This document shows positions 10,529-29,330 of a stretch of 64,000 nucleotides of DNA, piece by piece. Every line of letters begins with the position of its first letter. The stretch's first letter is position 1. The notes beneath the pieces were generated by a model. The model searched no databases and was not told the origin of the DNA. It saw nothing but the letters and a program-made list of their open reading frames with translations. The translations under genes and the position numbers were made by a program. Source of the stretch: Jaapia argillacea MUCL 33604 (Eukaryota; Basidiomycota; Agaricomycetes; Jaapiales; Jaapiaceae); contig KL197712.1 of NCBI GenBank assembly GCA_000697665.1, forward strand, positions 567,412 through 631,411, in the 5' to 3' direction.

Positions 10529-11164
10529 TCACTCCACTGCCATCTTCTCCAACCTATTCTTCGCAATCTTCCCGATATCGTCCACGGCCCTCCGAAGCTC
10601 TCGCACCCACTCGTCACTCCCAGCCCCTAAAACACCCACTGTCTCTACCCCAGGATCATCGGGGCTCAATCTTCGCTTATCTGGGCTGATATCAAGAACC
10701 TCTTCCATCTCATCCGCGATGACAGCTCGAGGTCGCCCATTTACGAAAGTGATGTATCGGAGTCCTGGATAACGGTGCTCGTACAGTGCATTCAGATGAG
10801 CGAGACGAGCGAGGACTTCTGGTGGTGTAGGCGTCACTAGTAGGACGTTCGAAGACGATTGGCCCTGTTCAGTTGCACTGAACGCACTCAATCCTTTGAC
10901 CTCTCCGATCCTGGGATGTGCGACGATGAATCTCGCTTGGAGATCATGCGGCCATGAATGGATTATGGAGATACTGAGATCGATGAGTTGGGCGTATGTG
11001 GTGATGGATTCGGATGAGGGGTTGAGTAGGGACGATGAGACTTGTGGTACGAGATGGGAGATTAGGACTGGGGATGGTTCGAAGAGGAGAGCGAGGGCGT
11101 TGGAGATGTGAGACGTCGATTCGGGGATGCTCGTGAGGATTTGACGCAGGGGTGGGAGGGACAT
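10529..11164 (-). CDS. 2-oxo-4-hydroxy-4-carboxy-5-ureidoimidazoline (OHCU) decarboxylase
   Basis: Catalyses the last step of urate breakdown to S-allantoin after uricase and HIU hydrolase, probably in the peroxisome or cytosol. It is a single-exon frame, and ATG 11164 gives the family-like start MSLPPLRQILTSIPEST. The upstream in-frame extension has no ATG. It contains LALLFEPSPVLISHLVPQV, SISIIHSWPHDLQARFIVAH, then PRIGEVKGLSAFSATEQ and LARLAHLNALYEHRYPGLRY, followed by ITFVNGRPRAVIADEM. The PRIGE...EQ and LN..YE.R.G signatures match the OHCU decarboxylase family (catalytic His in AHPRIG). A truncated copy lies 9.4 kb to the right (20205-20670). Confidence 0.88.
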   Translation of the reverse strand: MSLPPLRQILTSIPESTSHISNALALLFEPSPVLISHLVPQVSSSLLNPSSESITTYAQLIDLSISIIHSWPHDLQARFIVAHPRIGEVKGLSAFSATEQGQSSSNVLLVTPTPPEVLARLAHLNALYEHRYPGLRYITFVNGRPRAVIADEMEEVLDISPDKRRLSPDDPGVETVGVLGAGSDEWVRELRRAVDDIGKIAKNRLEKMAVE

Positions 11165-11783
11165 TGAAGCTTTGGGGAACTTGAGACTCGTGGCTAAGCG
11201 TCTCTTGGATGATGGTTCTGCAGAACCCAAGTGACAAGCTTTATTCTGAAAAATATTGAGTTAATCTATCATTATATTCCTTCCTTCCTCCGGCTTCTGA
11301 TTCCCTCAATAGGCACGGAATCTGATCCGAGTACTCCAAAGAGGATTGAACTCTGAACGAGGCAGCCTCGCAGGATGACAAATCGTTCCTCGCTGGGGCA
11401 ATATGTGGCTGGCATTCCTTGACGTCGACAATCTGTGCGGCGGTGGGACACCAAGGAGGGACGTTCGGCGACTTATTCATAGTGCGGCTAGTGAAAGTAA
11501 GTCCAAACCCTTTGTATGCGAGCTAGCGTAGACTAAAATGAACATCGTCCACAGTGCTAGTGATTGGCGAAGTACAACATGAACGCCGAAGAGTTGGATG
11601 GCGACTCCGCGACACAAGACGCCGAAAGCTGACAAATACCCCGTATCTGGTCAACTTCTTCAAAACCTTCATACAGCAAAATGCTGAAAATGCAAGGAAA
11701 TTCAAAAATATATTCCCATGAGGGAAATGGCGGGCGATTAAGCTGAGCTACCGTTGTTCCACCTCTCGACGCCGTGGCGAGCG
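11165..11783. promoter_or_regulatory. OHCU decarboxylase promoter side and copy-1 upstream region
   Basis: A 619-bp divergent gap. From about 11510 rightward the sequence is repeated at about 22615-23022 upstream of copy 4, apart from an extra stretch of about 150 bp there (22722-22870). The duplication therefore carried promoter as well as coding sequence. Confidence 0.5.
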
Positions 11784-13169
11784 ATGTCGCCAAACCGATG
11801 GGCAGCCACCCCAAACTGTTCCAACGACTCCCCCTCCCATTCTTCACAATGGAACGAGCCCGCCTCTAAGCTGCAACGTCCCAAGCCCTCTCATCAAAGC
11901 ACCTTTCAAACCGAGAGTGCCAGTGCGTCCAGAACACTGGTCGAAGTTGCCCCTTCACAAGGTTTACGGCTTTTTATATGGCTATCGCTTCCGTTAACGC
12001 AGATTCGTTTTTCACAGTCACCCACGAAACTCTCCAAACGGATGCAGCTACTTATCATCTTCGCGAGATTGGCGCTCATACAAGAGCACTCATCGGCGAA
12101 GCATCCCGTGGAATTGCGAGTCTATTGTCCGCCACGTTCGAGAGAGTGATCCAAACAGTGAGTAGCCTAGAGGATGATCGAGAAATCGTGAGTGCCCCGA
12201 CGGTCCTATGGGTGAATGAGCCATCTCACCAACTCGCTATGGTTGCGGCAGGACTCGTCACGAGGAGCTGTAGAACCACGGACAGTGAACGACGATAATT
12301 TGCTCCCGGGTTCTCCCCGGTCGTCAGTCACAGCGATATCTTGGCCCCCTTCCCCTTTTCTTCCATACTCGAATGTGGAACATGATCCCACAAGTCTTGA
12401 TCATGCCCACGTCTCAACAAACACAAATATCGCACATATTGAAGGAAGCAGCCAATCTCTTGGTCATTGTGTGACTTGCCGGAGGAGTTTCGATGAAACT
12501 AGTTCGGTTCCGTCAATCTCGTCCGGGTCTTCGGATGGAATGCGTCGCCGAGAAGACCGTTCAGTCAACACAGCAGCCCCGTTGACTTCACCATTCCCTG
12601 GGGCATCCAGTCATCCACGTTTACACACGATTTCCAGGTACGTAGCTGCCTTTTCTATCCACTTCACACTTTGGTTTACCCACCTGCGATCTCATGTAGA
12701 ATCACAAACATTCCCGATCGACCGACGCCGTTCTACAATTTCTCGCCTGTGGATATGACCACAGCCTCTCCTCGACAGGATCCGTTTAATTTCCAGAGTA
12801 GCGTTCTACCTCCTCCCGATCCTAGAATCATTCCACACGCTACCAGACAGTACCATAGTGTCGGGCGACCATCCTTTACCCCCTCAAGGATCCCAATAGC
12901 GATACATCATCGACGTCCGTCCACGACAGAACATCCCCGCTCGGAAGCTACCCCAAGACACCCTTCCACCAATTCGGTTGACTGGAGGCCTCCTGGCGAT
13001 AGCCAAGCTCGCGGGATGAGGAACACAAATGTATGTCACTACTTTCACTATCCCTCTACATTGTCAAACGCGGATTCTTCAGGCCCAACAGCCAGCACAC
13101 CCCTCCCGGATAGGCTCGGCGACCCATCCGCTATCTCGCGATCGATACCTCTATAGAGCTCCAAGATGA
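11784..13169 (+). CDS. Orphan Ser/Pro-rich family protein, copy 1
   Basis: No known domain recognised. ATG 11784 (MSPNRWAATPNCSNDSPSHS) opens a disordered N-terminus. After an intron comes the family's most conserved block, TLQTDAATYHLREIGAH then TRALIGEASRGIASLLSATF and ERVIQTVSSLEDDREI, predicted by eye to be one or two amphipathic helices. Next is SPRSSVTAISWPPSP, a single CxxC (HCVTCRRSFD), a long Ser/Pro/Thr-rich tail with FTPSRIPIAIHHRRPS, and a short last exon (AQQPAHPSRIGSATHP) ending at TGA 13167-13169. Five exons give about 390 residues with an open frame. No signal peptide or membrane helix was seen. Copies 2-5 share the block structure. Function unknown. Confidence 0.65.
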
Positions 13170-13593
13170 GACGTTCCTCGGCCCCCTTCCCGATAGTCGT
13201 CCTCTCGGAACGAATTTTGATTTCCTCTGTTCCTTCGCTCACTCTGTCCTTCCACCCCTACTTTACCACTGTACCACCAACTGACTTTCTGGTACTTTGA
13301 TCTCACCTCCACTTTTGGTTGAGAGTTTATCAACTCCACATCGAATATCCTGCTCCTACCGTTTTGCTTCCTATTTCTTGGTTGATCGTTATGCCTATCG
13401 TTGTGCTACTTCCACGAATCATCCCCGAGTGAACACTGCAGTGATTAATCGATCAACAGTCATCCGCCACACTTGCTCGATTAGGTAGAACAACTGGGTT
13501 ACGCTTAGTCAGCTTCCTGTGTTTGGAAACTTACGCGTCCTCTTTTCCCAAAACGACCACCTTTGTCAGCTCGACGATTCAGGAAACTGCACG
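13170..13593. other. Spacer between copies 1 and 2
   Basis: 424 bp of pyrimidine-rich 3' flank of copy 1 (alignable with the flank of copy 4 up to about 24650), then the upstream region of copy 2. The motif CGCCACACTTGCTCGATTAGG near 13470 recurs before copies 3 and 5 (about 15667 and 26047) and may be a conserved promoter piece. Confidence 0.45.
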
Positions 13594-15056
13594 ATGCAGC
13601 GAAACCGATGCCAATCTCAGGCTCAGAACGGTCTCCCACTGGCCACTATCGCTCGCGGTTTAAACCAAAGAACAACTCCCACAATTGCATCCAATACTCG
13701 GCCTCAGCGCTCCTTTGGAGTCGCCCATGGCCACACACATCGATCCCCCCATGGATTATCGACGGAGGAGTATCTTAGTAGTGAAGGTTTGGATCTCGAT
13801 TACCGCTGTGCTCGAAGTTGACCACTGAATCTATTTCTAATCTTCAGTTGTTGGCCAAGCGCAGCCACTCGACACAGCGAGTTATCATCTGCAGGAAATT
13901 AGCGCCCACACTGTTGCCCTGATCGGCAAAGCATCTCGGGGAATCTTTGCCCTCTGTTCGAGTGCCCTTGAGCAAGTAATCCAAACAGTTGACGGGCTGG
14001 AAGATCGAGAAATTGTAGGCTGTCTAGTCGTCTGGTCTGGTGGAAGGCTACGTCTGACCGCCGTGCTGTGGGCACTTCAGGAATCCTCGATAATCTTGGC
14101 AGATCCGTTTGTAGATGCACGGAACCTCGGTGGCAGTGTCGAGTTACTGCTGGATTCTCCCCGGTCGTCACTCACGGATATTTCCTATCCTTCGTCTCCG
14201 TACGATTTTGGTCCACCTCGAGACAATAACATCGCGGTCGATGCCGTAGAGCTGTATCCCAGACGGCCACCGGGTCGCTGTGCGACATGCAAGAGGGATT
14301 TAGATGGAACTACCTTGATCACGTCCGGCCCAGATTCAGACGAGTGGTATGAAGACATATTGGACCCGCAGCGTCCAAGTTATCAAAGGAAATATCACAC
14401 GGAGACTGACCACCCACTCGTCACACCCAATTCGTTCCAAGGAACAAATTCCTTACGTCTGTCCATTCCTCCGAGGTGAGCTCCTCACAGTCTTTCCCCC
14501 CTTTCATCCCATTTACCCACTTCCGTTGTTGCGATCGTAGGTCCTCCAGTGATCCCGGCAGAACTGTTCCGTTCTCGGTCTCGCTGTCTCATGGAACACC
14601 ACATGATGCTCGTAGGATGACTAGAGTTGACCCTCTGCATGGTCACCAGCGTAGCACGTCCTACTTAGAAGGCCCTCGTACCACGACACGAGCCGGCACT
14701 GTGCACTCTCGGCCACCAACATTGCCTCCCTCGAGGATCCCGATAGCCGCGTCTCATCGCCAATCGCCCAACGCTCGCTTTTCTGGATCATCAAGCAGCT
14801 CGTCTAGGATCGTCAGCTCTCGATCATCCTTCGCGTCTGCTTTTGGTCATGGTACAAATGTATGTCCTTAGGTGGATCTGAGGCCCACTGTTGCTGAAGG
14901 CCTTAATTTGTTTTTCAGGATTATCACCCGTCCTCTACCAATAGTTCCTTCTCTTCCAGTTCCTCCCAGCGGGGCTGCGAGGGAAACTCATTGGATTCCC
15001 GTGACGGCCAATATAACGCGCGTTCCCATCGGGCGAATCAGGCCAGGCGTCGATGA
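13594..15056 (+). CDS. Orphan Ser/Pro-rich family protein, copy 2
   Basis: ATG 13594 (MQRNRCQSQAQNGLPLATIA) leads into SFGVAHGHTHRSPHGLSTEE. After an intron comes the conserved helical block ASYHLQEISAHTVALIGKAS, RGIFALCSSALEQVIQTVDG, LEDREI. The next exon has VELLLDSPRSSLTDISYPSSP, a CxxC motif RCATCKRDLDGTTL and SDEWYEDILD. Then come a Ser/Arg-rich tail (LPPSRIPIAASHRQSP) and a last exon beginning DYHPSSTNSSFSSSS, ending RRR at TGA 15054-15056. Introns follow GAAG|gt, GAAATT|gt, CGAG|gt and AAAT|gt and are placed as in copies 3 and 5. The frame is open throughout (about 400 residues). Function unknown. Confidence 0.65.
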
Positions 15057-15367
15057 AGCGTCTGTTCCCTCGGACATGGACATCTTGAGAATGTGTGTCG
15101 GGACTTGTCTTCTACTAATGATTATCAGAAAAGACAAGCAACCAGCTCTTTCGACGACCGACTCCTACTCGCCCCTGTCAATATGTATAACTGTCTATTC
15201 TCTGACTGGTCGCCTTTGTACTCCCTGTGTTATCATCTAACTGCTTTGCTTTTCCTCGTCTCTATTGGACCTGTTGTACGTTCCTCTCGGCTGCTCCCCA
15301 CCTTCCTGCTGCGATTTCGATCACTCTGTATGTACTCGCCCTCTCGAAAATTATTTCCTGTTTGGAT
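15057..15367. other. Copy-2 3' flank
   Basis: 311 bp. The sequence is shared with the 3' flanks of copies 3 and 5 (pyrimidine-rich, with GCTTTGC[AT]TTTCCTCGTCTCT), so it belongs to the duplicated unit. No separate gene seen. Confidence 0.4.
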
Positions 15368-15654
15368 AAATGAAACCATAATCTACCGCCGCCTTGGAAC
15401 ACCACATCCCCCTATGACGAAGTACCGCGCGACCCACCTGGTCCCCTGCCCGATCCGATAAACACAGGAAGATCATTTCAGCTGCTGGATTGTTCGGATG
15501 ATCCTGAAGTAGTGCCCTGCTTCTTACCTACACTGCATACAATGAGGCCGTGCAGGAATGCTCTTTCGCGCTTCCCGCAATGGGCGCTTCACTGCGTGTC
15601 ACAGCAGTTTGGATAAATACCATGCACCACTATACTAAATAATGCATCAAATCG
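15368..15654. repeat. 0.28-kb dispersed repeat, copy A (other copy at about 59594-59870)
   Basis: This stretch matches 59594-59870 in the same orientation with only scattered differences, for example ACCGCGCGACCCACCTGGTCC, GATAAACACAGGAAGAT and ATGAGGCCGTGCAGGA. Both copies end at GCATCAAATCG. In this array the repeat interrupts the 3' flank of copy 2 just after TTTCCTGTTT, where copies 3 and 5 continue with family sequence. It ends 6 bp before the ATG of copy 3. No terminal inverted repeats or ORF seen. Confidence 0.75.
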
Positions 15655-15660
15655 CGGCCG

Positions 15661-17001
15661 ATGCATCCGCCACACTTGGTCGATCAGGTGGCTCAGCGCT
15701 CCTTTGGAGTTGCTCATGACCGTTCGTATCGGCCCCCTTATGCGCTCCCCCATGGATTATCGACCGAGGAGCCTCTTACTAGCGAAGGTTTGCAGCTCCT
15801 TTACAACTGTAATCGAGGTTGGCCGTTGAATCTATTTCTAATTTTCAGTTGTTAGCCAAGCACTGCCAGTCGACACAACAAGTTATCATCTGCAGGAAAT
15901 TAGCGCCCACATGGTCGCCCTGATCGGCAAAGCCTCTCGGGGAATCTTTGCCCTATGTTCGAGTATCCTTGAGCAAATAATCCAAACGGTTGACGGGCTG
16001 GAAAATCGAGAAACTGTAAGCTGTCTAGTAGTTCTGGTGGAAGGATAAGTCTGACGTGCTATCGGCACTTTAGGAATCCTTGACACTCCTGGAAGATCCG
16101 CTTGTAGATGCACAGAACCTCGACGACAGGGTCGAGTTACTACTGGATTCTCCCCGGTCGTCAGTCACCGCTATCTCCTACCCTCCGTCTCCGCGCAATT
16201 TTGGTCGACAGCCACTGGGTCGCTGCCAGACGAATCCAGGCGTAACCACTTTGAGCCCATCTGGCCCAGCGCGTCCATGTTCAGACGAGTGGTATGAAGA
16301 CATATTGGAAACGCAGCGCCCGAGTCATCAAAGGAAAAATCGCATGGAGACTGGCCACCCACTTGTCACACCCATTGCGTTTCAAGGAACAAACTCCTTG
16401 TGTCCATCCATTCCTCCGAGGTGAGCTCCTCATAGTCTTTCCCCCCTTTCATCCCATTTACCCAGTTCCGTTGTTGTGATCGTAGGTCCTCCAGTGACCC
16501 CGACAGAACTGTGCCATTCTCGGGCTCGCTGTCTCATGCAACACCCCATGATGCTCCTAGGATGACTAGAGTTGACCCTCTGCATGGTCATCAGCGTGGC
16601 ACGTCCTACTTAGAAGGCCCTCGTACTACGACGCGAGCCGGCACTGTGCACTCTCAGCCACTAACTTTGCCTCCCTCGAGGATCCCGATAGCCGCGTCTC
16701 ATCGCCAATCGCCCAACGCTCGCTTTTATGGATCCTCAAGCAGCTCGTCTAGGATCGTCAGCTCTCGATCGTCCTTCGCGTCCGATTTTGGTCATGGTAC
16801 AAATGTATGTCCTTCGCTGGATCTGAGGCTCGCTGTTGCTGAAGGCCTTGATTTGTTTTTCAGGATTATCACTCGTCCTCTACCAATAGTTCCTTCTCTT
16901 CCAGTTCCTCCCAGCGGGGCCGCGAGGGAAACCCATTGGATCCCCGTGACGGCCAATATAACGCGCATTCCCATCGGGCGAATCGGGCCAGGCGTCGATG
17001 A
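15661..17001 (+). CDS. Orphan Ser/Pro-rich family protein, copy 3 (new 5' end)
   Basis: ATG 15661 gives MHPPHLVDQVAQRSFGVAHD. The first ten codons come from what is untranslated upstream sequence in copies 2 and 5 (GCCACACTTGGTCGATCAGG), fused in frame to the SFGVAH segment. The original start and about 35-40 N-terminal codons are missing. Downstream exons are intact: TSYHLQEISAHMVALIGKAS, RGIFALCSSILEQIIQTVDG, LLLDSPRSSVTAISYPPSP, CSDEWYEDILETQRPSHQRK, LPPSRIPIAASHRQSP, and the last exon from DYHSSSTNSSFSSSS to RRR at TGA 16999-17001. The CxxC of copies 1 and 2 is replaced (GRCQTNPGVTTL). By internal deletions and wording it is closest to copy 5. A 0.28-kb repeat lies directly upstream. Confidence 0.6.
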
Positions 17002-17375
17002 AGCGTGTGTGTCCTGCGGACATGGATGTCTTGAGAGAGAGCTATTGATTATCAGAAAAGACAGGCTACCAGCTCTTCGACGACCGACTCCTACTCGCCC
17101 CTGTCAATATGTATAACTGTCTATTCTCTGACCAGTCGCCTTTGTACTCCCTGTGTTATCATCTAGCTGCTTTGCATTTCCTCGTCTCTGTTGGACCTGT
17201 TGTACGTTCCTCTTGACTGCTCCCTACCTTCTTGCTGCGATCCGATCACTCTGCATGTACTCGCCCTTTCGGAAATTATTGCCTGTTTTTTTCCCTTCAA
17301 ATCTATCTTTTGCATTTAAACGTCAGGCTGTCGTGCATAAACCTCCCAAACTCCAACTTTTGCTTGCTTTGCCAT
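17002..17375. other. Copy-3 3' flank
   Basis: 374 bp that align with the region after copy 5 (27590-27980), ending in TTTTGCTTGCTTTGCCAT where the inserted element begins. No gene seen. Confidence 0.4.
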
Positions 17376-19253
17376 CGCATCAGGAAAAACCCTATCTGAC
17401 AATAAGAACTAATAAGCTCTTATTGGTCGCCAATTATCCATTATCACGGATTAGCAGAGATTATATAAGTCCAATAATGGATTGCTAGGCTTGGGGCAAA
17501 TTAGCACTAATTTGTCTACGATTAGAGTCGGATTAGCAGATCCTTTTCCTTGTGTTTCTTGGTTTCATTCATATCATAGCAGATAAAGAGCAGGTTGAAG
17601 TCATATCATATTGCCATAGTATGTAAGGTACAAAGTGTAGGGTACGAAGTCCTAGGCTGAGACGGGCAGAAAGGAGACCTACCCCCCTCCAGCAAACCCA
17701 TAAGCATATACTACAATAAGGAGCAGAGTGAGGAGAGCACGAGAATCAGACAAGCAGATGGGATAGTTGAAAAGAGGGGGCGAGGGCAACCCATGTAACC
17801 GAGTGATTAGGGGTGTACAGGGATATGCAACAATTCGAGGAGGTTAGCCAGTCATAAAGGTAGCAAGTAGTACCTAAGCAATCACGACAATTGGGAATCC
17901 AACCGGAAGCCCCCCAACATCTTCAGCGGATTCACTACGTATATGCATGATGTCAGAAGGGAAACGTAGAGAGAGCATACCACATTGACAACCGGCTGGG
18001 AGGGGTATCACAAGGTGAGGCAGTCGTGCAACGTGGCGCTGGTGTGGCCTATCGAGGGAGGTTAGTCACGGGAAAATAGACATCGGAGATCGCTCAACTG
18101 GTGTATGGAAATGCCACTCCAACCCATCCATCATCCACTACTAAACCCAGGCATCTCACGACGACAACATTACAATGTACCAGCACTCAGTACCTGGGGA
18201 AGATACAGCGGCATCTCGTGGTTCTACATGGAGAAGTTGAGTGAGTGAGTAGAGCGTAGCAATGGTAGGGGAAAACGCCTTCTATCGCAACGCACGACAC
18301 CTCCACCATTCTGGAGATCCTGAACGGGAAAACTTACCGTTACCGGGTTTGCAACTACCAGCGTGCCGACTAGGAATCATTGGGTCTTGTAGGTATCAAG
18401 CGTTGGCGGCCAGCATAGTCGTTAAGCACAGGACCCAGCGCTGCGTGGACGTCGATCTCAATGAGCAGAACGAGCAGGACGATGTTGAAAAGGGACGACT
18501 GAGTTGAACACGCTTATGTCAGCACTTCAAGCTCCGCTCAAATCAATTTCCTTGGACTTAGAGTCATTTCTTGGTCGTTTCACTTGTCCACGTCGCACGC
18601 AAGGTACCCTCACTTGGTGATTTTGCTCCCTCAAATCTGCAATTAATTGCGCGACGAATACTTGCTTGTCTCTTTCACCCGTCCCAGTCTTATCCGATGC
18701 TCCATCCTCCGTGTTGCTGTTGCGGGCTCAATTCATTGTGGTGAATTCCGATCTCCATGCCTGGCCAAACCTCACCCATCCACAGAAAACTCTCGACACC
18801 ACCCACCACTCAGCCCGACCCACCAACCATTACACAATGTTTCGACTTACCTGACCACTCCGCACTCCGCACCCCACGAGCATAGTCCCCCTCAAACTCG
18901 ATGATCACTGTGGGTTATCACCGAACGCCTGTAGTCTCTTAGTCACTTTGAGGATCCGCCTTGCAATTGCACGATGTTATCTTCAACCATTTGTAGGCCA
19001 TAGGTCCTTGAATATATCTTGCTTCGAGTAGTTTTATTAAGTGGGGCACCATTCGAGAACAGCTCAGATTCGTTCCAAAAGCGCGTTGTGGCACACCACA
19101 ACTTGCCGCTGATTTCCATAATTTCTACTGACTCATAGATAGACTGATAATCGCAGGTAGAGTCTCTTCAATGAATTTGCATTCGTTAGTTCGTCGTTAG
19201 CATCGAAAAGGACTAATTGGCGATAATTGGAGGATTCGCTTTTTCCTGATGCG
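17376..19253. mobile_element. 1.9-kb insertion with 14-bp terminal inverted repeats (non-autonomous DNA-transposon-like)
   Basis: The left end CGCATCAGGAAAAA (17376-17389) is the exact reverse complement of the right end TTTTTCCTGATGCG (19240-19253). Subterminal motifs are also mirrored: GCCAATTA occurs near the left end and, on the other strand, near the right end. The homologous locus after copy 5 passes directly from TTTGCCAC to CTCGTATCTC at about 27980 and so represents an empty site. The interior is non-coding by eye: an AT-rich left part with an 8-bp palindrome CAAATTAG-CA-CTAATTTG (17497-17514), then about 1.5 kb with no long frame. No transposase motif seen. Target-site duplication is unclear, so the superfamily (hAT-like is possible) is not assigned. 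Confidence 0.65.
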
Positions 19254-20206
19254 CTCGTATCTCGTATGTCGTCGTCTATGTATTTCTTCTATGTAATGCA
19301 TACCTCTATGGGGAGTTCCAATTCTATAACCGAGGTGTTTATATGATTACAATTTGTTATACAAAATCCAACCAGATGCCACGAAACTACGTCAGCAATC
19401 AACGGTGGAATATCATCTCATAGTCCTCAAAGCTTCTTTGATAGTACTTCGCTCCCCCAGCAGCGCAAACATCGCCACCTCTGATCCCTAACCTCTCGCT
19501 CCTTCAACACCTCTTCATCAAAATAGTTGCTCTCGTTATCTCCCAACGCCAATCTCATGGCTGCGGCGCTTTTATTGGGGAGGACGGCGGGGGAGAGGGT
19601 GAAGAGGGTATCAATGTGGAGGAGGTTAGGACTGCTGAGGAGTGTGGACGGGGGTGCGTGAGGGAGGGGGCGAGGGAGAGAGAGATTGAGGAGATGTTGG
19701 CAGAGGTCGAGGTTAAGGTTATAGCTTGGATTATTAGTTGTTTGAGTTTTGCCTGTGGGGTGAAGGGGTAAGTAAGGTTGGGTAAGGTAGAAGAAGAAAT
19801 GTGTGCAAAGGAGAAGAGAACGTACTTCGAAAGCCAGCATCATTAGTTGGGAGACTGCGCGCGACGGGGCGCCTAGATTATGTTGAGCCGATATGAGGTT
19901 TATTCGGTCTGATATGTGTTGGAGTGTGGGCGCGGGTGACGGAAGCTAAGTGAAGAGGTAATCTACTTCCAGGCGGATCTGCGTACGCCGAATCATCAGC
20001 CACCAGACCCCAAACCACCGTCGTAGAGACCAGTCGTGAAACATACCTCCACGTTCAAGTAACAACACAACACCCCTCTCCCGAGCAATCTCATCTCTCT
20101 CCGTCCTTGACTTATTCTCAGAAGACAATGCAAGTGTCTCAAGTCCCCTCACGCGATCACGCTCTCTCCTCCCAACTCCCAATGCCCATCGCTTTAGTCG
20201 AGATGA
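19254..20206 (-). pseudogene. Partial copy of the ADA1 3' half
   Basis: This matches the C-terminal exons, introns and 3' flank of the intact ADA1 gene (about 27980-28955). It retains segments for ALPNKSAAAMRLALGDNE-like and SENKSRTERDEIARERG-like sequence. A one-base loss near 19471 (ACATCGCC against ACATCTGCC in the intact gene) shifts the last exon's frame, and the N-terminal Tad1 half is absent. At its right edge it is fused to an OHCU decarboxylase fragment. It is a dead gene fragment, useful as a marker of the rearrangement. Confidence 0.8.
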
Positions 20207-20670
20207 AAGTGATGTATCGGAGTCCTGAATAACGGTGTGCGTTCAGATGAGAGAGACGAGCGAGGACTTCTGGTGGTGTAGGTGCCACTAGGAAGACGTT
20301 GGAACCTGATTGGCCCTGCTCAGTTGCACTGAACGCACTCAATCCTTTGACCTCTCCGATCCTGGGATGTGCGGCGATGAATCTCGCTTGGAGATCATGC
20401 GGCCATGAATGGATTATGGAGATACTGAGATCGATGAGTTGGGCGTATGTGGTGATGGATTCGGATGACGGTTTGAGCAGGGACGATGAGACTTGCGGTA
20501 TGAGATGGGAGAATAAGACTGGAGATGGTTCGAAGAGGAGTGCGAGGGCGTAGGAGAGGTTGGGCGTCGTTTCGGGGACGCTGGTGAACGGTGGGAGGGA
20601 CATCGAAGATTTGGGGAATTTGAAACTACTATTCGAAGCAATGCGTCTCTTAGATGACGACTCTGCAACT
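20205..20670 (-). pseudogene. Truncated OHCU decarboxylase copy fused to ADA1 sequence
   Basis: It repeats about three quarters of OHCU decarboxylase (10529-11164), from MSLPPF at 20603 through LQARFIAAHPRIGEVKGL to HLNAHRYSGLRYITF. After ITF it joins ADA1-derived bases and runs STKAMGIGSWEERA to a stop at 20157, out of the ADA1 frame. Three residues (LYE) are missing next to HLNA. The C-terminal 55-60 residues, including NGRPRAVIADEM, are gone, so activity is unlikely. Homology continues slightly upstream of the ATG to about 20670. The junction at 20205-20206 shows a 2-nt overlap (GA) between the two parent sequences. Confidence 0.82.
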
Positions 20671-20852
20671 TTATGCTGTGCCCCTCCTTTCAAGCCTCCT
20701 ACCTCCAGCCGATTTATGAACGCAGAATGTGTAGTGATGCGGCTCATATGTCAACCCTTTACCACCACACTTGAAGCTTGAAGCTCCCCTTGGTGTCCCT
20801 TTTGGTATTTGTCTGTAAAGTTTTTCAAAAATGTTAATGTCTTTGACCGATT

Positions 20853-20871
20853 CCTCGTAATAGTTACGAGG
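20853..20871. repeat. Perfect 8-bp palindrome with 3-nt loop
   Basis: CCTCGTAA-TAG-TTACGAGG, followed by a GGCTGTCTTA/GGCTGTCTTG tandem pair. It may be a hairpin or an element edge; no gene is attached. Confidence 0.5.
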
Positions 20872-21049
20872 GCTGTCTTAGGCTGTCTTGCATATGGGCC
20901 AGTATGACTCGTAGTAATCAATTGTGCCCTTAACTGCCTTGCAAGCTGTGATGAGACATTGCGCATGATCGATAGATTACCTCAAGTAGGGGAGCCTCGG
21001 CGTCCTTAAGCTTGCTGTGGCATTCGCCCTGGTTTCCACAAAAATGCTG

Positions 21050-21320
21050 TCCGCTATGACGGTCAAAGTGCACTTTTATTCCCGCGCGCAACGTTTGCTG
21101 GAGCGCGCTCAACTCGAGGAGCACTCAACTTCCTGAAGTCTTATTTCTTGCTCGACAGACACCTCAACTGCACCAAAGGGTCCCAAACCTCTTCAATATA
21201 TATGTCTAACTTGTTTATGAACTCCTCCAATGCGTTGATGTCGATAGGCATCGGAACGGAAATTGCCATTACTTACCTTAAAAGGAAATTTCTCATTCAG
21301 GACATGGAATGTTCAGACGT
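21050..21320. repeat. Left arm of a 0.27-kb inverted repeat pair
   Basis: From about CTATGACGGTCAAAGTGCAC to GACATGGAATGTT, this arm is the reverse complement of about 22085-22350 with scattered substitutions. The arms are separated by about 0.76 kb. On the minus strand this arm carries a 42-codon ORF. Confidence 0.75.
21141..21269 (-). CDS. 42-residue ORF in left inverted arm (orphan)
   Basis: The frame reads MAISVPMPIDINALEEFI, then NKLDIYIEEVWDPLVQLR, CLSSKK. The same ORF is intact in the other arm (22131-22259). The two differ by one seen amino-acid change (NK against NE) and at least one silent change (AAC/AAT for Asn). The ATG lies 6 bp after a GTAAGT donor-like motif, so this may instead be the 3' end of a longer spliced gene. 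Composition (acidic, hydrophobic spacing) suggests a helix. No known family recognised. Confidence 0.35.
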   Translation of the reverse strand: MAISVPMPIDINALEEFINKLDIYIEEVWDPLVQLRCLSSKK

Positions 21321-22081
21321 TGACCTCTTTACACCAAGTTGTTGAATGGCTGGTACTGATCTCGTCTGCTTCTCCTGCTCCTTCTTCCCAATTGTCAGTA
21401 TAACCTCCACTCAAGAGTCAAGAGGCCCTCCACCCTGGCCTGCAATCGTGGCTGTCAAAATACATATCGACAACCACAGGAGGTTCGATGTATGGACTCT
21501 GTCAATTCAACTGCCGTGGCTTGCGACTTCACATCGCTGAGGCCGGCTTATTGGATGTACTCAACGTGCCGTATCAAGAAATTTGCTCTAGGTTAGGGGG
21601 TGAATGTAATCTATGGTGAGTTTAACCTTGCAAAGTTCGGAAGTTTCAGTGGATGTGACTTGTTGTTCATGTCTGAACTCCTCTTCATAGAAATTCTCAT
21701 TCTAATTTGTCCTCCTGCCTTTGGTAATTGTAATCCCCCTCCGTTGTCACCCATCTTTCCATTAGTATCTCCCCACCTTTAGTACCCTACCTGTATCCTT
21801 CTCAATCTCCCCTCACCCTGATCGTCTCTTCACCCCCATCCCCCCTTCTCCCCCCCCCTCTCCTCTTCCTCTTCTCCTCCCATCCTCCCTGCCTCCCGAG
21901 TTCGCCTACAGTCCTCATATCCCGCATCTACCATCTCTCCCTTCTCGTTTGACCCCCTCCCATTTTTCCACACCCATACCAACTAGTATATCCACCTGTA
22001 TACCATACATAGTCTAGCTATCCAAGACATTCTATTCACAATTGGGACTGAAAGTCGATGGGGAGTTGTGAGCATGCCTCT
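21321..22081. other. Spacer between inverted arms, with a polypyrimidine tract
   Basis: About 0.76 kb with no supported gene. The stretch 21780-21965 is almost pure C/T on the plus strand (runs such as CCCCCCCCTCTCCTCTTCC). Confidence 0.5.
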
Positions 22082-22084
22082 TGC

Positions 22085-22350
22085 CCCAACATTCCGTGTC
22101 CTAAACAGAAATTTCCTTTTACGGTAAGTAATGGCAATTTCTGTTCCGATGCCTATCGACATCAATGCATTGGAGGAGTTCATAAACGAGTTAGACATAT
22201 ATATTGAAGAGGTTTGGGACCCTTTGGTGCAGTTGAGGTGTCTGTCGAGCAAGAAATAAGACTTCAGGAAGTTGAGTGCTCCTCGAGTTGAGTGCGCTCC
22301 AGCAAACGTTGTGCACGGGAATAAAAGTGCACTTTGACCATCATAGTCCG
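22085..22350. repeat. Right arm of the 0.27-kb inverted repeat pair
   Basis: Reverse complement of the left arm at 21050-21320, running from AACATTCCGTGTC to TTTGACCATCATAG. The similarity ends abruptly beyond CATAGTCCGCC. Confidence 0.75.
22131..22259 (+). CDS. 42-residue ORF in right inverted arm (orphan)
   Basis: Twin of the ORF at 21141-21269: MAISVPMPIDINALEEFI, NELDIYIEEVWDPLVQLR, CLSSKK, with TAA at 22257-22259. It is also preceded by GTAAGTA just before the ATG. It is too short to be certain, but the frame survives in both arms. Confidence 0.35.
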   Translation: MAISVPMPIDINALEEFINELDIYIEEVWDPLVQLRCLSSKK

Positions 22351-22614
22351 CCAGCAGATTAAGTTGTACACCTGTTCCTTCAACAAAATCGTTATATTCC
22401 CAGGCCCTTCCAACTGCTTCTGACTGGGACGTCCGAAAGCGTAGGTTACTGGCTCTATGCAAATGTCAAACATAGTTTTACTATCTTAACGTCTGCTAAA
22501 GGAGACTACTATGCAAATTGATTGGCGTTCCTGTTGCAACGACTCCTCGAGCCAAGTGCTCCGCCACGAACTGACTTTTTCAGAGTGTAAGTCTCTGCCA
22601 TTGTATGCAAACTA

Positions 22615-24650
22615 ACGTGGCTTGAAATGAACATCGTCCACCAAAGTGGGACATCAACGCTGGAGGGTTAGATGGTAACTCCGCGATCCAAGACACTGAA
22701 AGCCAAGTCGACAAATACCTAGCTTAGATTGGTGAAGGCTCCCATACGCAGAATTCATCGACGACAATCCTCCTGTATATGGACATGAAATACCCATAAG
22801 TAGCTGGCCAAGTAGTCTCCGTAGACAAACCATTATCCATGACCTATTTTGTAGGTGATGATCACTCGTATTACTGGTCAACTTCTTCAAACATCCTTAC
22901 CACTTACAGCAAAATGCTGAAACTACAGGGAAATTCAAAATATATTCCCATGAGGCATGAGGGAAATGATGGGCGGCCAAGCTGAGCTGCCGTTGTTTGA
23001 CCTCTCGACCCCATGGTGAGCGATGTCGCCAAACCAATGGCCAGCAACCCCAATTGGCTCCTACAATCCCCCCTCCTATCCTTCGCAATGGAATGAGTCT
23101 GCCTTGCTGCGACGCCCCAAGCCTTCTCATCAAAGCATTTTTCAAACTGAGAGTGCCAGCACATCAAGAGAACTGGTCGAAGCTGCCCCTTCAGAAGGTA
23201 GCAGATTTTTTATGTGGACTATCATCGCCGTTGACACTGATTCTTGCCCCACAGTCGCCAACGAAAATCTCCAAACAGATGCAGCCTCTTATCATCTTCG
23301 TGAAATTAGCGCTCATACAAGAGCACTCATTGGTGAAGCATCCTGTGGATTTGCTAGTCTATTGTCCACCACGTTTGCGAGAGTGATCTGAACAGTGAGT
23401 AGCCTAGAGGATGATCGAGAAATTGTGAGTGTCCCAATGGTCCCATGAGTGAATGAGCCATCTCACCAACTCGCTGTGGCTGCAGCAGGACTCGTCACGA
23501 GGAGCTGTAGAACCACGGACAGTGAACGGCAATAATTCCCTTCTGAGTTCTTCCCAGTCGTCAGTCACAGCGGTATCTTGGCCCCCTTCCCCTTCCCCTT
23601 TACTTCCATACCCGAGTGTGGAACATGATCCTGCAAGTCTTGATCATGCCCATGTCTCAACAAACACAAATATTGCACATATTGAAGGAAGCAGTCAATC
23701 TCTTGGACATCGTGTCACTTGCCGGAGGAGTTTCGATGGAACTGGTTCGATTCCATCAATCTCATCCAGGTCTTCGGATGGAATGTGTCACTGAAAAGCC
23801 CGTGTGGTGAACTCGGCAGCCCTGTTGACCCCACCATTCCCTGGGGCATCTGGTCATCCACGTTTACACACAACTTCTAGGTACGCAGCTGCCTTTTCTA
23901 TCCGCTTCACACTTTGGGTTACCCATCTGCGATGCCATGTAGAATCACAAACAGTCCTGAACGAGTTACGCCATTCTACAATTTCTCACCTGTGGACATG
24001 ACCGCGGCCTCTCCTCGAGCGGCTCCTTCGTTTTCACCCCAGAATGTTGTGGCACCCCCTCCTGATCCTAGAATCACTCCTCATCCTACCAGACAACATC
24101 ATAGCATAAGGAGATCATCTTTCACTCCCTCAAGGATCCCAATAGCGATACAGCATCGACATCCGTCCACGTCAGAAGTTTCCCACTTGGAAGGAACCCC
24201 AAGATACCCTTCCACCAATTCAATTGACTGGAGGGCTCCTGGAGGTAGTCAAGCTCGCGGGATGAGGAACAGAAATGTATGTTACTACTTTTAATATCCC
24301 TCCACATTGTCAAACTAGGATTCTTCAGGCCCAACGGCTGGGACACCCCTCTCGGGTGGGTTCAGCGACCCATTCGTTATCTCAGGATTGATACTCCTAC
24401 AGAGCTCCAAAATGAGACATTCCTCTCCCCCTTCCCCTTAGTCGCCCTCTCGGAACGATTTTTGATTTCCTCTGCTCCTTCGCATACTCTGTCCTTCCGC
24501 CCATACTTTGCCGCTGTACCACCTCACTTACTGGCTCTTAGATCTCACCTCCACTGCTGGTTGTGTGTTTGTCAAATCCACGTAGAATATCCTTGTTTCT
24601 GCTATTTCGCTTTGTATTGCTTGGTTGATCGTTATGCTATGCCTGTCGCT
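22615..24650. repeat. Segmental duplication of 11510-13430 (copy-1 unit)
   Basis: Collinear with the copy-1 unit from AAATGAACATCGTCCAC (11537 against 22627) through the 3' flank GTTATGCCT at about 13390/24640. The second unit holds about 150 extra bases at 22722-22870. It ends where the 24.65-kb element begins. Confidence 0.8.
23023..24391 (+). pseudogene. Orphan family copy 4 (decayed twin of copy 1)
   Basis: Collinear with copy 1, from ATG 23023 (MSPNQWPATPIG). The conserved block is present as SYHLREISAHTRALIGEAS, but the CAA codon after GTGATC in copy 1 is TGA here (near 23389), ending the frame in exon 2. The GGTCGTTCGGTGAAC-like region near the CxxC segment is also altered (GTGTCACTGAAAAG introduces a stop). 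The last exon ends early, at QD*. The rest remains very similar to copy 1. Most likely a pseudogene unless read-through or another splice pattern is used. Confidence 0.65.
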
Positions 24651-24653
24651 GTA

Positions 24654-25991
24654 CACCCCCAACCTGGCCTGGGACTTCTGTGACGTGAGGAAGGAACATC
24701 ACACCAATATTTGGCGGTTACGTCCCCAAAGGCCTTGGGTAAGGTCATGAAGACCTTTTGTGAATAAGATTTATTTTCTGCTTTGCACAGGCTTGGGGAG
24801 GGTTCGCTCAAGGTTGGTACAAGGTTGGGAAGCCAGACTTGGAGGATGTGTGAGGTAGCATGGAAAATATATTGCTATAGCCCATTTCTTCTGAGCCAGG
24901 GTTTGGGCTGAAGGGAGCATAAGTTTAACTAGTATTACCCTTCCCCCTTCACATCATTTGAAGGTAAGACAACGTGCCCAAAACCATCTGCCCAAGCAGA
25001 GGCTTGGACTTCACGATTTCAAGTGTTCGGTGAGCGACGGGATTTGCCGTCGGAGTTGGAACCACATATGTATCATGGTGCTTGCATGGTGCGACATTGA
25101 AAATTTGTGGTTGTTTCTTCAACATCGTCAACGTTGTTCCTTGGGCCGCAAGCTGCTATCGGTGTCCCGCCCTGCACAGGCTCAGAAGAGTGGACCACAA
25201 GCCCCCACTGCTGGAACCCCGTCTTGTTCTCACCTGGTTCCACCACGTCCGAAACTTGCCCTCCCGAGGTCCCAACTGGACCGCACCAAACCACTGGCTG
25301 TCATCATCAAGAGGCTCTGGATCCCCCCCCAGGACATTTTTCTGAGGTTCCTGGCTTGAAGAATTATTGCTGTCTTTGGTGCCTCGGTTGTCCTGCCCCG
25401 AAACCTCCTCCTTGAGCGCTGAAGAAACTTGGTTCTTGCATGCCGGTCCCCCATGGTGCCGTGTGGCAACCTTTTACCACACCCAGTTGAGTCAATCCAG
25501 AAATCAGCAACCCTCCACCCCATCCAACTGCGAACAGCGTCGACACCCTGCTTCTGCCCCCCCTGCCCCAGACCCAATGACTCCCCACCACACACCCACC
25601 TCTCGGCTCCACGGTCTCTCATTCCTCTCCACGGTCTCTCATCTCTCCCCCCATCAAAGTCATGTATTCCTGTCTCAATTCCATATGATCATGTAGTTGA
25701 GAATTGTATTTATATCACTCAATTTTAGTTGTTTTGCCCTCCTCTCATCTGGTTGAATGAGATTCCGAAATAATACAATAGGAATTACTATCTACCAGGA
25801 TAGGATTGACATCACATCAAGAGGATCTGGGAGGCCAGGTCATGAAAGCATGAACTGGAAACCTTTGCCCAACCTTGGAGGTCGGGCAAGGCTTGATTGA
25901 TTTTTGTATTGCGGCGATTCAGACGTTTTCCCAAGGTCTTGGTAGGGTCCGGTCGAAAACCTTTTTTTGACCTCTTTCTAAATTGGGGGTG
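24654..25991. mobile_element. 1.34-kb insertion with short terminal inverted repeats, unclassified
   Basis: The ends are CACCCCCAA (24654-24662) and TTGGGGGTG (25983-25991), exact reverse complements, and one position outside matches as GT[AG]. The element separates copies 4 and 5, where the copy 1-copy 2 spacing has no such sequence. Its interior repeats CCAAGGTTGGG/CCTTGGG-type motifs near both ends (24736, 24810, 25880, 25940), like subterminal repeats. A minus-strand frame at 25230-25622 has no recognisable domain. No transposase signature seen. Superfamily unassigned. Confidence 0.5.
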
Positions 25992-26169
25992 CACTGACTA
26001 GTAGTCGTAACTCCCATGATTGAGCTACGGGTACCCCAATGCATACGCCACACTTACTCGATCAGGTGCAGCCACGTGCTTGGTGCTTAGTAATTATTTC
26101 GTGTGAAAGTATGCCTCAAAAGGCATTTTTTGTCAATTGAACAATCCCTCTTCAGGAAACGTCGCGACG

Positions 26170-27589
26170 ATGCAGCGGAACCAAGGCGAATCTCCTCAGA
26201 ACAATCTCCCACTGGCCAACATCGCTCGCAGTCCAAACCAAAGAGCAACACCCACAACATTTCGATCCAATACTCGGCCTCAGCTCTCCTTTGGAGACGC
26301 CCATGGCCATTCGTATCGATCCCCTCATACGCTCCCCCATGGATTATCGACCGAGGAGTCTCTTACAAGCGAAGGCTTGGATCTCCTACGCCGCTGTGCT
26401 CGAAGCTGACCGCTGAATCTATTTCTAATCTTCAGTTGTTAGCCAAGCGCTGCCAGTCGACACAGCAAGTTATCATCTACAGGAAATTAGCGCCCACACT
26501 GTCGCCCTGATCGGCAAAGCCTCTCGGGGAATCTTTGCCCTGTGTTCGAGCGCCCTTGAGCAAGTAATCCAAACGGTTGACGGGCTGGAAGCCGGAGAAA
26601 TTGTAAGCTGTCTGGTATTCTGGTGGAAGGATATGTCTGACCGCCGTGCTATCGGCACTTTAGGAATCCTCGACACTCGTGGAAGATCCGCTTGTAGATG
26701 TACAGAACCTCGATGGCAGGGTCGAGTTACTGCTGCATTCTCCCTGGTCGTCAGTTACCGCTATCTCCTATCCTCCATCTCCGCGCAGTCTTAGTCGACA
26801 GCCACTGGGTCGCTGCCAGACGAATCCATATGTAACCACTTTGATCTCATCTGGCCCAGCGCGTCCATGTTCAGACGAGTGGTATGAAGACATATTGGAA
26901 ACGCAGCGCCCGAGTCATCAAAGGAAACATCGCATGGAGACTGGCCACCCACTTGTCACACCCAATGCGCTTCAAGGAACAAACTCCTTGTGTCTATCTA
27001 TTTCTCCGAGGTGAGCTCCTCACAGTCTTTTCCCCCTTTCATCCCATTTACCCAGTGCTGTTGTTGTGATCGTAGGTCCTCCAGTGACCCCGACAGAACT
27101 GTGCCATTCTCGGGCTCGCAGTCTCATGCAACACCCCATGATGCTCGTGGGATGACTAGAGTTGACCCTCTGCATCGTCATCAGCGTAGCACGCCATACT
27201 TGGAAGGCCCTCGCACCACGACGCGAGCCAGCACTGTGCACTCTCAGCCACCAACTTTACCTCCCTCGAGGATTCCGATAGCCACGTCTCGTCGTCCATC
27301 GCTCAACACTCGCCTCTCTGGATCATCAAGCAGCTCGTCTAGGATCGCCAACTCTCGGTCGCCCTTTGCCTCCGCATTTGGTCAGGGCGCAAATGTATGT
27401 CCCTTGGCTGGATGTGAAACGCACTGTTACTGAAGGCCGATTTGTTTTCAGGATCATCAGTCGTCCTCTACCAGTAGTTTGTTCCCTTCTAGTTCCTCCC
27501 AGCTGGGCAGCGAGGGAACTTCGTTGGACTCACGTAACGGCCGATACAACGCGCGTTCCCATTGGCCGAATCAAGCCAGGCGTCGATAA
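26170..27589 (+). CDS. Orphan Ser/Pro-rich family protein, copy 5
   Basis: ATG 26170 (MQRNQGESPQNNLPLANIA) leads to SFGDAHGHSYRSPHTLPHG and an intron, then the conserved block ASYHLQEISAHTVALIGKAS, RGIFALCSSALEQVIQTVDG. The next exon carries VELLLHSPWSSVTAISYPPS and CSDEWYEDILETQRPSHQRK; the tail has LPPSRIPIATSRRPS. The last exon begins DHQSSSTSSLFPSSS and ends RRR at TAA 27587-27589. All frames are open (about 390 residues). It shares the short CQTN form of the CxxC region with copy 3 but keeps the full N-terminus of copy 2. Its 3' flank runs directly into the 3' side of ADA1. Function unknown. Confidence 0.65.
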
Positions 27590-28151
27590 AGTGTCTGCGT
27601 CCCTCCGACATGGACGGCTTGAGAGAGAGTCGGAACTTGCCTTCCACTAATGATTATCAGGAAGACAGGCAACCAGCTCTTTCGACGACCGACTCCTACT
27701 CGCCCCTGCCAATATGCCCAACTGTCTATTCCCTGACTAGTCGTCTTTGTAGCCTGTGTTATCATCCAACTGCTTTGCATTTCCTCGTCTCTATTGGACC
27801 TGTTGTACGTTCCTCTCGACTGCTCTCTACCTTCTTGATGTAATTCGATCACTCTGCATGTGCTCGCCCTCTCAGAAATTATTTCCTATTTCTTTTCTCC
27901 AAATCTATCTTTTGCATTTGTTCGTCAGGCTGCCGTGTGTAAATCTCCCAAACTCCACTTTTTGCTTGGTTTGCCACCTCTCGTATCTCCTCTCTAGTCG
28001 TGTGTCGTCGTCTATGTATTTCTTCTATGAAATGCATTCCTCTATGGAGAGTTCCAATTCTAAAATCGAGAAGGGACCCATATGATTACAATGTGTTGTA
28101 CAAAATCCAACCAGATGCCACGAAACTACGTCAACAATCAACAGTGGAATA
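27590..28151. other. Convergent gap between copy 5 and ADA1; empty site for the 1.9-kb element
   Basis: The copy-5 3' flank (to about 27980) joins the ADA1 3' flank. The corresponding place between copy 3 and the ADA1 fragment holds the 1.9-kb inserted element. No gene seen. Confidence 0.5.
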
Positions 28152-29330
28152 TCATCTCATAGTCCTCAAAGCTTCTTTAACAGTACTTCGCTCCCCCAGC
28201 AGCGCAAACATCTGCCACCTCTGATCCCTAACCTCTCGCTCCTTCAACACCTCCTCATCAAAATAGCTGCTCTCGTTATCACCCAACGCCAATCTCATAG
28301 CTGCGGCGCTTTTATTGGGGAGGACGGCGGGGGAGAGGGTGAAGAGGGTATCAAATGTTGAGGAGGTTAGGACTGTTGAGGAGTGTGGACGGGGGTGCGT
28401 GAGGGAGGGGGCGAGGGAGAGAGAGATTGAGGAGATGTTGGCAGAGGTCGAGGTTAAGGTTATGGCTTGGATTATTAGTTGTTTGAGTTTTGCCTGTGTG
28501 GTGGAGGGATAAGTAAGATTGGATTGGCTAGGAGAAGAAAGGTATGGAAAGGAGAAGAGAACGTACTTCGAAGGCCAGCATCATTAGTTGGGAGACTGCA
28601 CGCGATGGGGCGCCTAAATTATGTTGAGCCGATATGAGGTTTATTCGATCTGATATGTGTTGGAGTGTGGGAGCGCGGGTGACGGAAGCCAAGTGAAGAG
28701 GCAATCTACTTCCAGCTGGATCTGCGTACGTCGAATAATCAGCCAGTAGACGCGAAAAACTGTCTCCCCAACAAGTCGTGAAACATACCTCCACGTTCGG
28801 GTAACAATATAACACCCCTCTCCCTAGCAATCTCATCCCTCTCCTTCCTGGGCTTATTCTCAGAAGACAATGCAAGCGTCTCAAGTCCCCTCACGCGATC
28901 ACGTTCTCTCCTCCCAACTCCCAGGGCCCATCGCTTTAGTCGAGATGACCGGAGAGTATCATCGGATTCGGGACCTTGGTATGGGAGCGTACGCCTACGT
29001 TTGCGTGGGGGTGCCTTTGGAAGATCGGGGGGTGGTGTGGGGGGAGCTTGGTGGGCAGTAGTATCGAACAAGGAGATGATGAGGGCATTGTGCAATTGTA
29101 CTATCAGAAGGGCAGTAAAGTAAGTATAAGGTGTGATAACTGGCGTAACGGGATGGTATGTACGTACGGAGATTGGTACTGTCAAGTAGCTCGCGAACAG
29201 ATTCATCGAATTCGACTCTGGGGATTTGACCTTGGATATAACTCTGTAGGGTCTCCCAATATTTGGATGCTTTGGATCCGAGACCTGCGGTCAACTGGTT
29301 CTTGATTGTGGATGTCGACGAAAGCGACAT
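28152..29330 (-). CDS. HFI1: ADA1/HFI1, SAGA coactivator subunit (Tad1 family)
   Basis: Core structural subunit of SAGA, paired through its histone-fold-like region with TAF12. ATG 29330 gives MSLSSTSTIKNQLTAGLG, then SKASKYWETLQSYIQG, IPRVEFDESVRELLDSTNL, and after an intron VQLHNALIISLFDTTAHQ. These are the hallmarks of the SAGA-Tad1 domain (KYWE..., EFD..V..LL, LHN.LI.S). Downstream are PRKRRRTLPYQGPES, SSRLKRWALGVGRRERDRVR, and C-terminal exons with PNKSAAAMRLALGDNESSY and QMFALLGERSTVKEALRTMR, ending TGA 28152-28154. A 3' partial copy lies at 19254-20206. It shares a 233-bp promoter with the makorin gene. Confidence 0.85.

What the first reader, a model, noticed from the sequence alone, without database searches (positions are those of the whole stretch)
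11784..27589. Five-copy cluster of an undescribed gene family in two arrays
Copies 1-2-3 (11784-17001) and 4-5 (23023-27589) share exon layout, a conserved helical block (YHLxEIxAHTxALIGxAS...VIQTV) and a Ser/Pro-rich tail with SRIPIA. No known domain is recognised. Four of five frames are open although neighbours in the same block are decayed, which suggests selection. Recent local expansion next to inserted elements is the pattern of fast-evolving accessory genes (self/non-self, effectors, stress).
Basis: partly seen in the sequence, partly recalled or inferred. Interest (0 to 1): 0.75.

Follow-up and report, generated by a model that had tools for sequence, protein, structure and literature searches.

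The report
Orphan fungal genes with microtubule-tip motif
The fungus Jaapia argillacea carries ten copies of a gene family for which our searches found no relative in any other organism; the proteins are predicted to be mostly unstructured and likely dock onto growing microtubule ends through one short motif that is unchanged in all seven intact copies.

Summary
The window has five copies of one gene with matching five-exon layouts. Copies 1, 2, 3 and 5 are open, though copy 3 lost the ancestral start; copy 4 has three stops. The host is Jaapia argillacea MUCL 33604. The two window arrays are halves of one old tandem duplication that also copied fragments of an OHCU-decarboxylase gene and the SAGA gene HFI1/ADA1; the join is visible at 20205/20206. 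Three protein searches returned three Jaapia entries or nothing; Pfam and PDB gave nothing credible. Selection is real but light: omega 0.64 overall, 0.37 in the helical exon, and omega 1 is rejected, although four of seven close pairs alone look near-neutral. AlphaFold predicts one 44-residue helix and low confidence elsewhere. The longest unchanged stretch is SRIPIA in the tail, invariant in seven intact copies and altered in the two truncated ones, d1 and d2. It matches SxIP, the EB1-docking motif, and an EB1 homologue is present. I infer species-restricted, disordered EB1-docking adaptors; binding and expression are untested. Nothing supports effector or self/non-self roles.

The parts
11784..13169 (+). 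copy c1 (subfamily A), 383 aa, 5 exons: 11784-11961, 12018-12187, 12252-12637, 12700-13030, 13083-13169; open
   Evidence: public model P0001 = JAAARDRAFT_31016 follows it through exon 4 and reads into intron 4
12018..12187 (+). c1 exon 2, holding the helical block (helix residues 69-112)
   Evidence: AlphaFold helix 69-112, block mean pLDDT 90-94 over residues 71-110; omega 0.37 over the block
12884..12901 (+). SRIPIA motif of c1
13594..15056 (+). copy c2 (subfamily B), 403 aa, 5 exons; open
14731..14748 (+). SRIPIA motif of c2
15661..17001 (+). copy c3 (subfamily B), 365 aa from an alternative ATG; ancestral 5' end of exon 1 lost; mosaic (exon 3 like c5, exons 4-5 like c2)
16676..16693 (+). 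SRIPIA motif of c3
23023..24415 (+). copy c4 (subfamily A), duplicate of c1, decayed: three in-frame stops
24130..24147 (+). SRIPIA still readable in decayed c4
26170..27589 (+). copy c5 (subfamily B), 391 aa, 5 exons, intron 1 GC-AG; open
27266..27283 (+). SRIPIA motif of c5
10529..11260 (-). OHCU decarboxylase reading frame (PF09349), left edge of duplicated unit; the only full-length match found in the genome
20205..20587 (-). partial duplicate of the OHCU decarboxylase gene (passenger)
19262..20206 (-). partial duplicate of the HFI1/ADA1 (SAGA-Tad1) gene (passenger)
   Evidence: matches 27998-28948 at 91.6%
27998..29351 (-). HFI1/ADA1-like gene (PF12767 match in 28995-29351; extent to 27998 from the duplicated part only), right edge of duplicated unit
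20205..20206 (.). junction of the tandem duplication, HFI1 fragment joined to OHCU fragment with about 2 bp overlap

Best explanation
This is a ten-copy gene family, found by our searches only in Jaapia argillacea, whose proteins are predicted to be disordered except for one 44-residue helix and likely dock onto the microtubule plus-end protein EB1 through an invariant SRIPIA (SxIP) motif. Shown: ten copies in two clusters, seven open, two subfamilies, light but real purifying selection, a most-constrained helical exon, and a six-residue tail motif unchanged in the seven intact copies. Predicted: one helix in an otherwise low-confidence chain. Inferred: SRIPIA sits in the EB1 pocket and brings the protein to growing microtubule ends, while the amphipathic helix binds itself or a cargo, so that the copies act as small adaptors. 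From the repeat pattern: the window arrays arose by one tandem duplication of a two-gene block (A then B) between the OHCU-decarboxylase and HFI1 genes, with one further B duplication and sequence exchange between B copies.
For: Ten copies. Only Jaapia proteins, or none, in a collection of 5.77 billion. SRIPIA is the longest invariant run over seven intact copies (6 residues, next longest 3); 18 of 20000 column shuffles of the tail give a run of 6 or more. Genome-wide, a degenerate codon pattern for SRIPIA hits 10 places, 8 of them family copies, against 5 for the reversed control; the two copies without it, d1 and d2, are also cut short by a shared tail frameshift. EB1 homologue over cut-off on C39. 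Helix plus low-confidence tail. SxIP motifs usually sit in disordered regions, and a hydrophobic residue then positive charges after SxIP matter for binding (passages of PMC12695022); c1 reads SRIPIAIHHRR, c5 SRIPIATSRR. Selection: omega 0.64 overall and 0.37 helix, omega=1 worse by 2dlnL 31.0 and 22.6; decayed c4 branch 0.125 against 0.060 for c1.
Against: No binding or localisation data exist. A chance SxIP appears in 277-464 of 2000 shuffled tails, so its presence alone is weak; only its conservation argues. Basic residues after the motif are two in c1 and c5, one Arg in c2, c3 and c4, and one or none in d3-d5. Tail selection is slight (omega 0.75, 2dlnL 4.8). The c1 helix shows no canonical heptad pattern (best register 43% core residues), and amphipathicity is not significant in d5 (237 of 2000 shuffles). 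Four of seven pairs reach the observed ratio in more than 5% of neutral runs. Exons are about as diverged as introns. The same codon pattern also hits two places outside the family, not examined. Transcription is unknown.
Confidence: 0.37

Rival explanations
1. The proteins are disordered adaptors or regulators, but SRIPIA docks a different partner, for example a phosphatase or kinase, not EB1.
For: The motif is conserved but short, and several docking motifs share I-x-I or proline cores (recalled); other invariant tail positions (S137 P138 S140 S141 T143 I145 S146 P148) would fit phospho-regulation.
Against: The match to SxIP, with a hydrophobic next residue, is exact. The calcineurin PxIxIT consensus (recalled) needs Pro two places before the first Ile and no Pro between the two Ile; SRIPIA fails both.
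Confidence: 0.25
2. Fast-evolving accessory genes of the self/non-self, effector or stress type.
For: Found only in this species, multi-copy, fast-evolving and beside inserted elements.
Against: No signal-like N-terminus by eye, no defence or effector domain in Pfam, omega below 1 rather than above it, and constraint centred on a helix plus one fixed motif.
Confidence: 0.15
3. Nearly neutral leftovers: a once-functional family carried along by segmental duplication and now decaying.
For: Three of ten copies are broken or cut short; four of seven pairs reach the observed ratio in more than 5% of neutral runs; exon and intron identity are alike; c3 has lost its original start; only three of the ten copies turned up in the protein collection.
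Against: omega=1 is rejected overall (2dlnL 31.0); the modelled chance of a stop-free frame per lineage is 0.03-0.28, yet seven copies are open; the broken c4 has twice the branch length of open c1.
Confidence: 0.18
4. A strongly diverged version of a known mitotic protein such as the DASH subunit Duo1, which also has a helical part and an SxIP tail.
For: Yeast Duo1 has a conserved SxIP in a disordered C-terminus needed for Bim1/EB1 binding (passages of PMC8441410).
Against: No Pfam DASH match up to E=10; a separate locus over the Duo1 cut-off exists at C11:248375.
Confidence: 0.04

Closest known systems
SxIP-type microtubule plus-end tracking proteins (such as APC, MACF, CLASP and yeast Duo1; APC, MACF and Duo1 appear in the passages of PMC12695022 and PMC8441410, CLASP is recalled)
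   Same: Exact SxIP in a predicted disordered Ser/Pro/Arg-rich tail, hydrophobic residue directly after it, EB1 present in the genome.
   Different: No detectable sequence relationship to any known member; one short helix only; basic residues after the motif are clear only in c1 and c5; binding untested.
Taxon-restricted (orphan) gene families with tandem duplication
   Same: No relatives found outside the species, fast evolution, local tandem copies, some copies broken.
   Different: Here a shared 5-exon structure, two old subfamilies and a fixed short motif are kept over large divergence.
DASH complex subunit Duo1
   Same: Helical part plus disordered tail with SxIP.
   Different: No Pfam match; the genome has a separate Duo1 match on C11.

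Membership tests
SxIP-type EB1-binding +TIP | S-x-I-P core conserved | tested here: met
   Invariant in 7 of 7 intact copies and still readable in c4; SRIT in d1 and d2
SxIP-type EB1-binding +TIP | Motif lies in a disordered region | tested here: met
   Low pLDDT around residues 296-319 of c1 and no secondary structure there; prediction only
SxIP-type EB1-binding +TIP | Hydrophobic residue then positive charges after SxIP | tested here: inconclusive
   Ile follows in 8 of 8 copies with SxIP; basic residues two in c1 and c5, one in c2, c3, c4, one or none in d3-d5; rule from PMC12695022 passages
SxIP-type EB1-binding +TIP | EB1 with an EBH domain in the same genome | tested here: met
   PF03271 match over cut-off at C39:136087-136188, reading LRDIE...EILYSTE
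SxIP-type EB1-binding +TIP | Binds EB1 and tracks microtubule ends | not testable with these tools
   needs peptide binding and imaging
DASH subunit Duo1 | Matches PF08651 | tested here: not met
   no match among Pfam hits up to E=10; a Duo1 match lies elsewhere
Transposon-encoded protein | Transposase, polymerase or other element domain, or terminal inverted repeats round the gene | tested here: not met
   no such Pfam match; the only inverted pair of 60+ nt reported in 5000-36000 is a separate element at 21054-22346
Taxon-restricted orphan family | No relatives outside the taxon | tested here: met
   three searches of 5.77 billion proteins: three Jaapia entries or none; two of the three were capped near 8000 candidates, the search needs shared 5-residue words, and no positive control was run
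Secreted effector | N-terminal signal peptide | tested here: inconclusive
   read by eye only: no hydrophobic N-terminal stretch in the translations; no predictor was run

The most novel reading that the evidence does not exclude
A single fungal lineage has evolved its own family of microtubule plus-end adaptors, built from nothing more than one amphipathic helix and an SxIP tail, and has amplified it to ten copies in two clusters with two old subfamilies.
Probability: 0.3. Interest if true: 0.62.

Novelty: new member of a known kind. Interest (0 to 1): 0.42.

Why it matters
Orphan families seldom give any handle on function. Here paralogues diverged to 32-46% identity act as their own comparative set and leave one testable six-residue motif and one helix. 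If EB1 binding is shown, it would be a clear case of a new protein joining a conserved cytoskeletal hub through a short linear motif. The locus also records how such a family grows: a tandem duplication whose join between two broken host genes can be read, followed by exchange between copies and loss of some.

Tried and rejected
Pfam scans of copies gave only weak sub-cut-off matches (mono-CXXC E 0.0056 in c1; zf-C2H2_jaz best E 0.17 in two members): rejected, since the single CxxC is absent in c3 and c5. PDB by sequence: 0. Foldseek against PDB with the AlphaFold model: 0 matches, uninformative for one helix. Two protein searches were capped at about 8000 candidates, probably filled by low-complexity words, so a search on the helical region alone was run, with 84 candidates. 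Canonical coiled coil: not supported by heptads in c1. Zinc hook: the CxxC is not kept in all copies. Duo1: rejected. Calcineurin docking: motif does not fit the recalled consensus. Allelic origin of the C6 cluster (heterokaryon) is unlikely: the OHCU gene has no second full-length match in the assembly, and C6:810001-850000 matches the window only within the family genes. Raw pairwise dN/dS would have overstated selection; a neutral simulation with transition bias gives about 0.8, not 1. Paper searches: JAAARDRAFT 0 papers; Jaapia argillacea 39 papers, 20 listed, none with a title on this family, none opened. Searches were seen as listings only, apart from three papers of which I read passages. 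Confidence in the best explanation went from 0.38 to 0.37 and in the decay rival from 0.17 to 0.18 for the second point.
Full report
WHAT IS THERE. The window lies in a 43.7-Mb, 95-contig genome. A profile search of the protein collection names it: copy 1 is JAAARDRAFT_31016 of Jaapia argillacea MUCL 33604, an agaricomycete. I modelled five copies in the window with matching architecture, five exons and four short introns. c1, c2, c3 and c5 translate without stops; c4 has three. c3 has lost the start of exon 1 seen in c2 and c5 and is open only from another ATG. Searching the genome with c1 and separately with c5 found a second cluster on contig C6, minus strand, about 822.7-836.3 kb, with five more copies, and nothing else (the tool states such counts are lower bounds). 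Of these, d3, d4 and d5 are open. d1 and d2 share a frameshift in the tail that ends the protein early (read by eye; both reading frames end in LLHQF plus one residue), and d2 also has an altered intron-3 donor. So 7 of 10 copies are open over their full length. d5 has two possible start codons.

HOW THE LOCUS AROSE. Self-comparison of the window shows that 10745-11136 (OHCU decarboxylase gene), 11642-13398 (c1), 15692-17374 (c3) and 19262-20206 (HFI1/ADA1 fragment) recur in the same order at 20205-20587, 22867-24640 (c4), 26279-27976 (c5) and 27998-28948 (HFI1). The HFI1 fragment ends and the OHCU fragment begins at 20205/20206, with about 2 bp of overlap. The simplest history is one tandem duplication of a block OHCU-A-B-HFI1 with break points inside the two flanking genes. 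One unit also has a further B duplication (c2/c3). Sites shared by c3 with c2 or with c5 switch sides along the gene (22 with c2 versus 51 with c5 before 14331, 83 versus 45 after it; Fisher p 2e-6), so B copies have exchanged sequence or were duplicated in parts. Insertions present in the second unit only are a terminal-inverted-repeat element at about 21055-22346, with three long relatives at 73-77% and many partial ones, and a repeat at 24652-25994 with long relatives on C27, C3 and C17. Identity is 92% for the passenger fragments, one partner of which appears to be a working gene. It is 84% and 87.5% for the c1/c4 and c3/c5 downstream flanks and 75% for the 200 bases upstream of c1/c4. The event is therefore not very recent.

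SELECTION. Pairwise Nei-Gojobori ratios in 11 within-cluster pairs are 0.43-0.72 over the protein and 0.07-0.69 in the helical block, the latter mostly with wide intervals. Transition bias alone lowers this measure. In neutral simulations the mean is 0.77-0.84, and the observed value is reached in 0 of 600 (c1/c4), 6 (c2/c5), 25 (c2/c3), 33 (d4/d5), 84 (d3/d4), 90 (d3/d5) and 210 (c3/c5) of 600 runs. So three of seven pairs fall below 5% and four do not. A codon model on the seven open copies (c4, d1, d2 left out) gives omega 0.64 over 343 codons, 0.37 over the 50-codon helical block, 0.72 over the rest and 0.75 over the last 131 codon columns. Omega = 1 is worse by 2dlnL 31.0, 22.6, 15.4 and 4.8 respectively (best of eight kappa values for the null). 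In the ten-copy tree the broken c4 has branch 0.125 and its open sister c1 0.060. Against this, exon and intron identity are nearly the same in the four pairs compared: 84.4 and 83.3% (c1/c4), 86.1 and 86.4 (c2/c5), 88.7 and 86.2 (c3/c5), 87.8 and 88.5 (c2/c3). The constraint is real but light.

THE PROTEIN. AlphaFold on the public c1 model with five related rows gives one helix, residues 69-112, at block-mean pLDDT 90-94 over residues 71-110; 253 of 396 residues score below 50, the mean is 50.6 and pTM is 0.29. The helix is amphipathic beyond shuffles at the 5% level in six of seven copies, but c1 has no clear heptad pattern. The longest run of invariant columns over seven intact copies is not in the helix: it is SRIPIA in exon 4 (6 residues; the next longest are YHL and ALI, 3 each). 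Only 18 of 20000 shuffles of the tail columns give a run of 6 or more. Its codons vary silently at Ser, Ile, Pro and Ala. A genome-wide scan with degenerate codons for this peptide (TCN serine codons only) hits 10 places: eight family copies and two others that I did not examine, against five for the reversed control. The copies without it, d1 and d2, read SRITIG and are also cut short.

MECHANISM. SRIPIA matches the SxIP motif that docks plus-end tracking proteins on the EBH domain of EB1. According to passages of PMC12695022, SxIP motifs usually lie in disordered regions, the motif alone binds weakly, and hydrophobic residues directly after it and positive charges further on are important. 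c1 reads SRIPIAIHHRR and c5 SRIPIATSRR; d3 reads SRIPIATSYLH, which is poorer. Fungal examples include yeast Duo1 (passages of PMC8441410) and the Mal3 ligand Tip1 (passages of PMC5201023). The genome has an EB1 match over cut-off whose reading frame includes LRDIE...EILYSTE; that these positions line the pocket is recalled. I therefore infer, without proof, that the family are small EB1-docked adaptors whose helix binds itself or a cargo. A chance SxIP is common in tails of this make-up (277-464 of 2000 shuffles), so the case rests on conservation and not on presence.

KNOWN OR NOT. Three searches of 5.77 billion proteins returned three Jaapia proteins or nothing. No other collection of fungal genomes was on hand, and no positive control was run for that search. 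Pfam and PDB gave nothing credible. Three of the ten copies turned up in the protein collection, and all three public models differ in exon choice from mine, so the other copies seem to be missing from the annotation. I file it as a new orphan family with a known kind of docking motif. It cannot be called a member of the +TIPs until binding is shown.

Noticed in passing
G000 contig C6:822744-836327 (L002, L003): Second cluster of five family copies on the minus strand, grouping with subfamily A, three open and two cut short; a mitochondrial carrier reading frame lies just beyond d5.
   Followed up: yes
window 21055-22346: Element with 240-270-bp terminal inverted repeats (94-97%) and three long relatives elsewhere in the genome; inserted in the second duplicate unit.
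   Followed up: partly
window 24652-25994: 1.3-kb dispersed repeat between c4 and c5, with relatives on C27, C3, C17 and partial ones on C36 and C52.
   Followed up: partly
window 15368-15615 and 59592-59838: A 248-bp sequence with only two detected copies in the genome, both in this window (93%), one just upstream of c3.
   Followed up: partly
window 19262-20587: Chimeric block joining a partial HFI1/ADA1 fragment to a partial OHCU-decarboxylase fragment.
   Followed up: yes
L002:4653-4970: Between C6 copies d4 and d5 lies a membrane-protein-like reading frame that reminded me of a phosphate transporter; no Pfam match, so unconfirmed.
   Followed up: partly
L003:7997-8479: Reading frame matching DUF6540 (E 2.9e-20) near the C6 cluster.
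   Followed up: no
P0001, P0002, P0003: Public gene models of this family differ in splicing from the copies' shared exon pattern: two read through an intron, one uses another first exon and stops after exon 3.
   Followed up: partly
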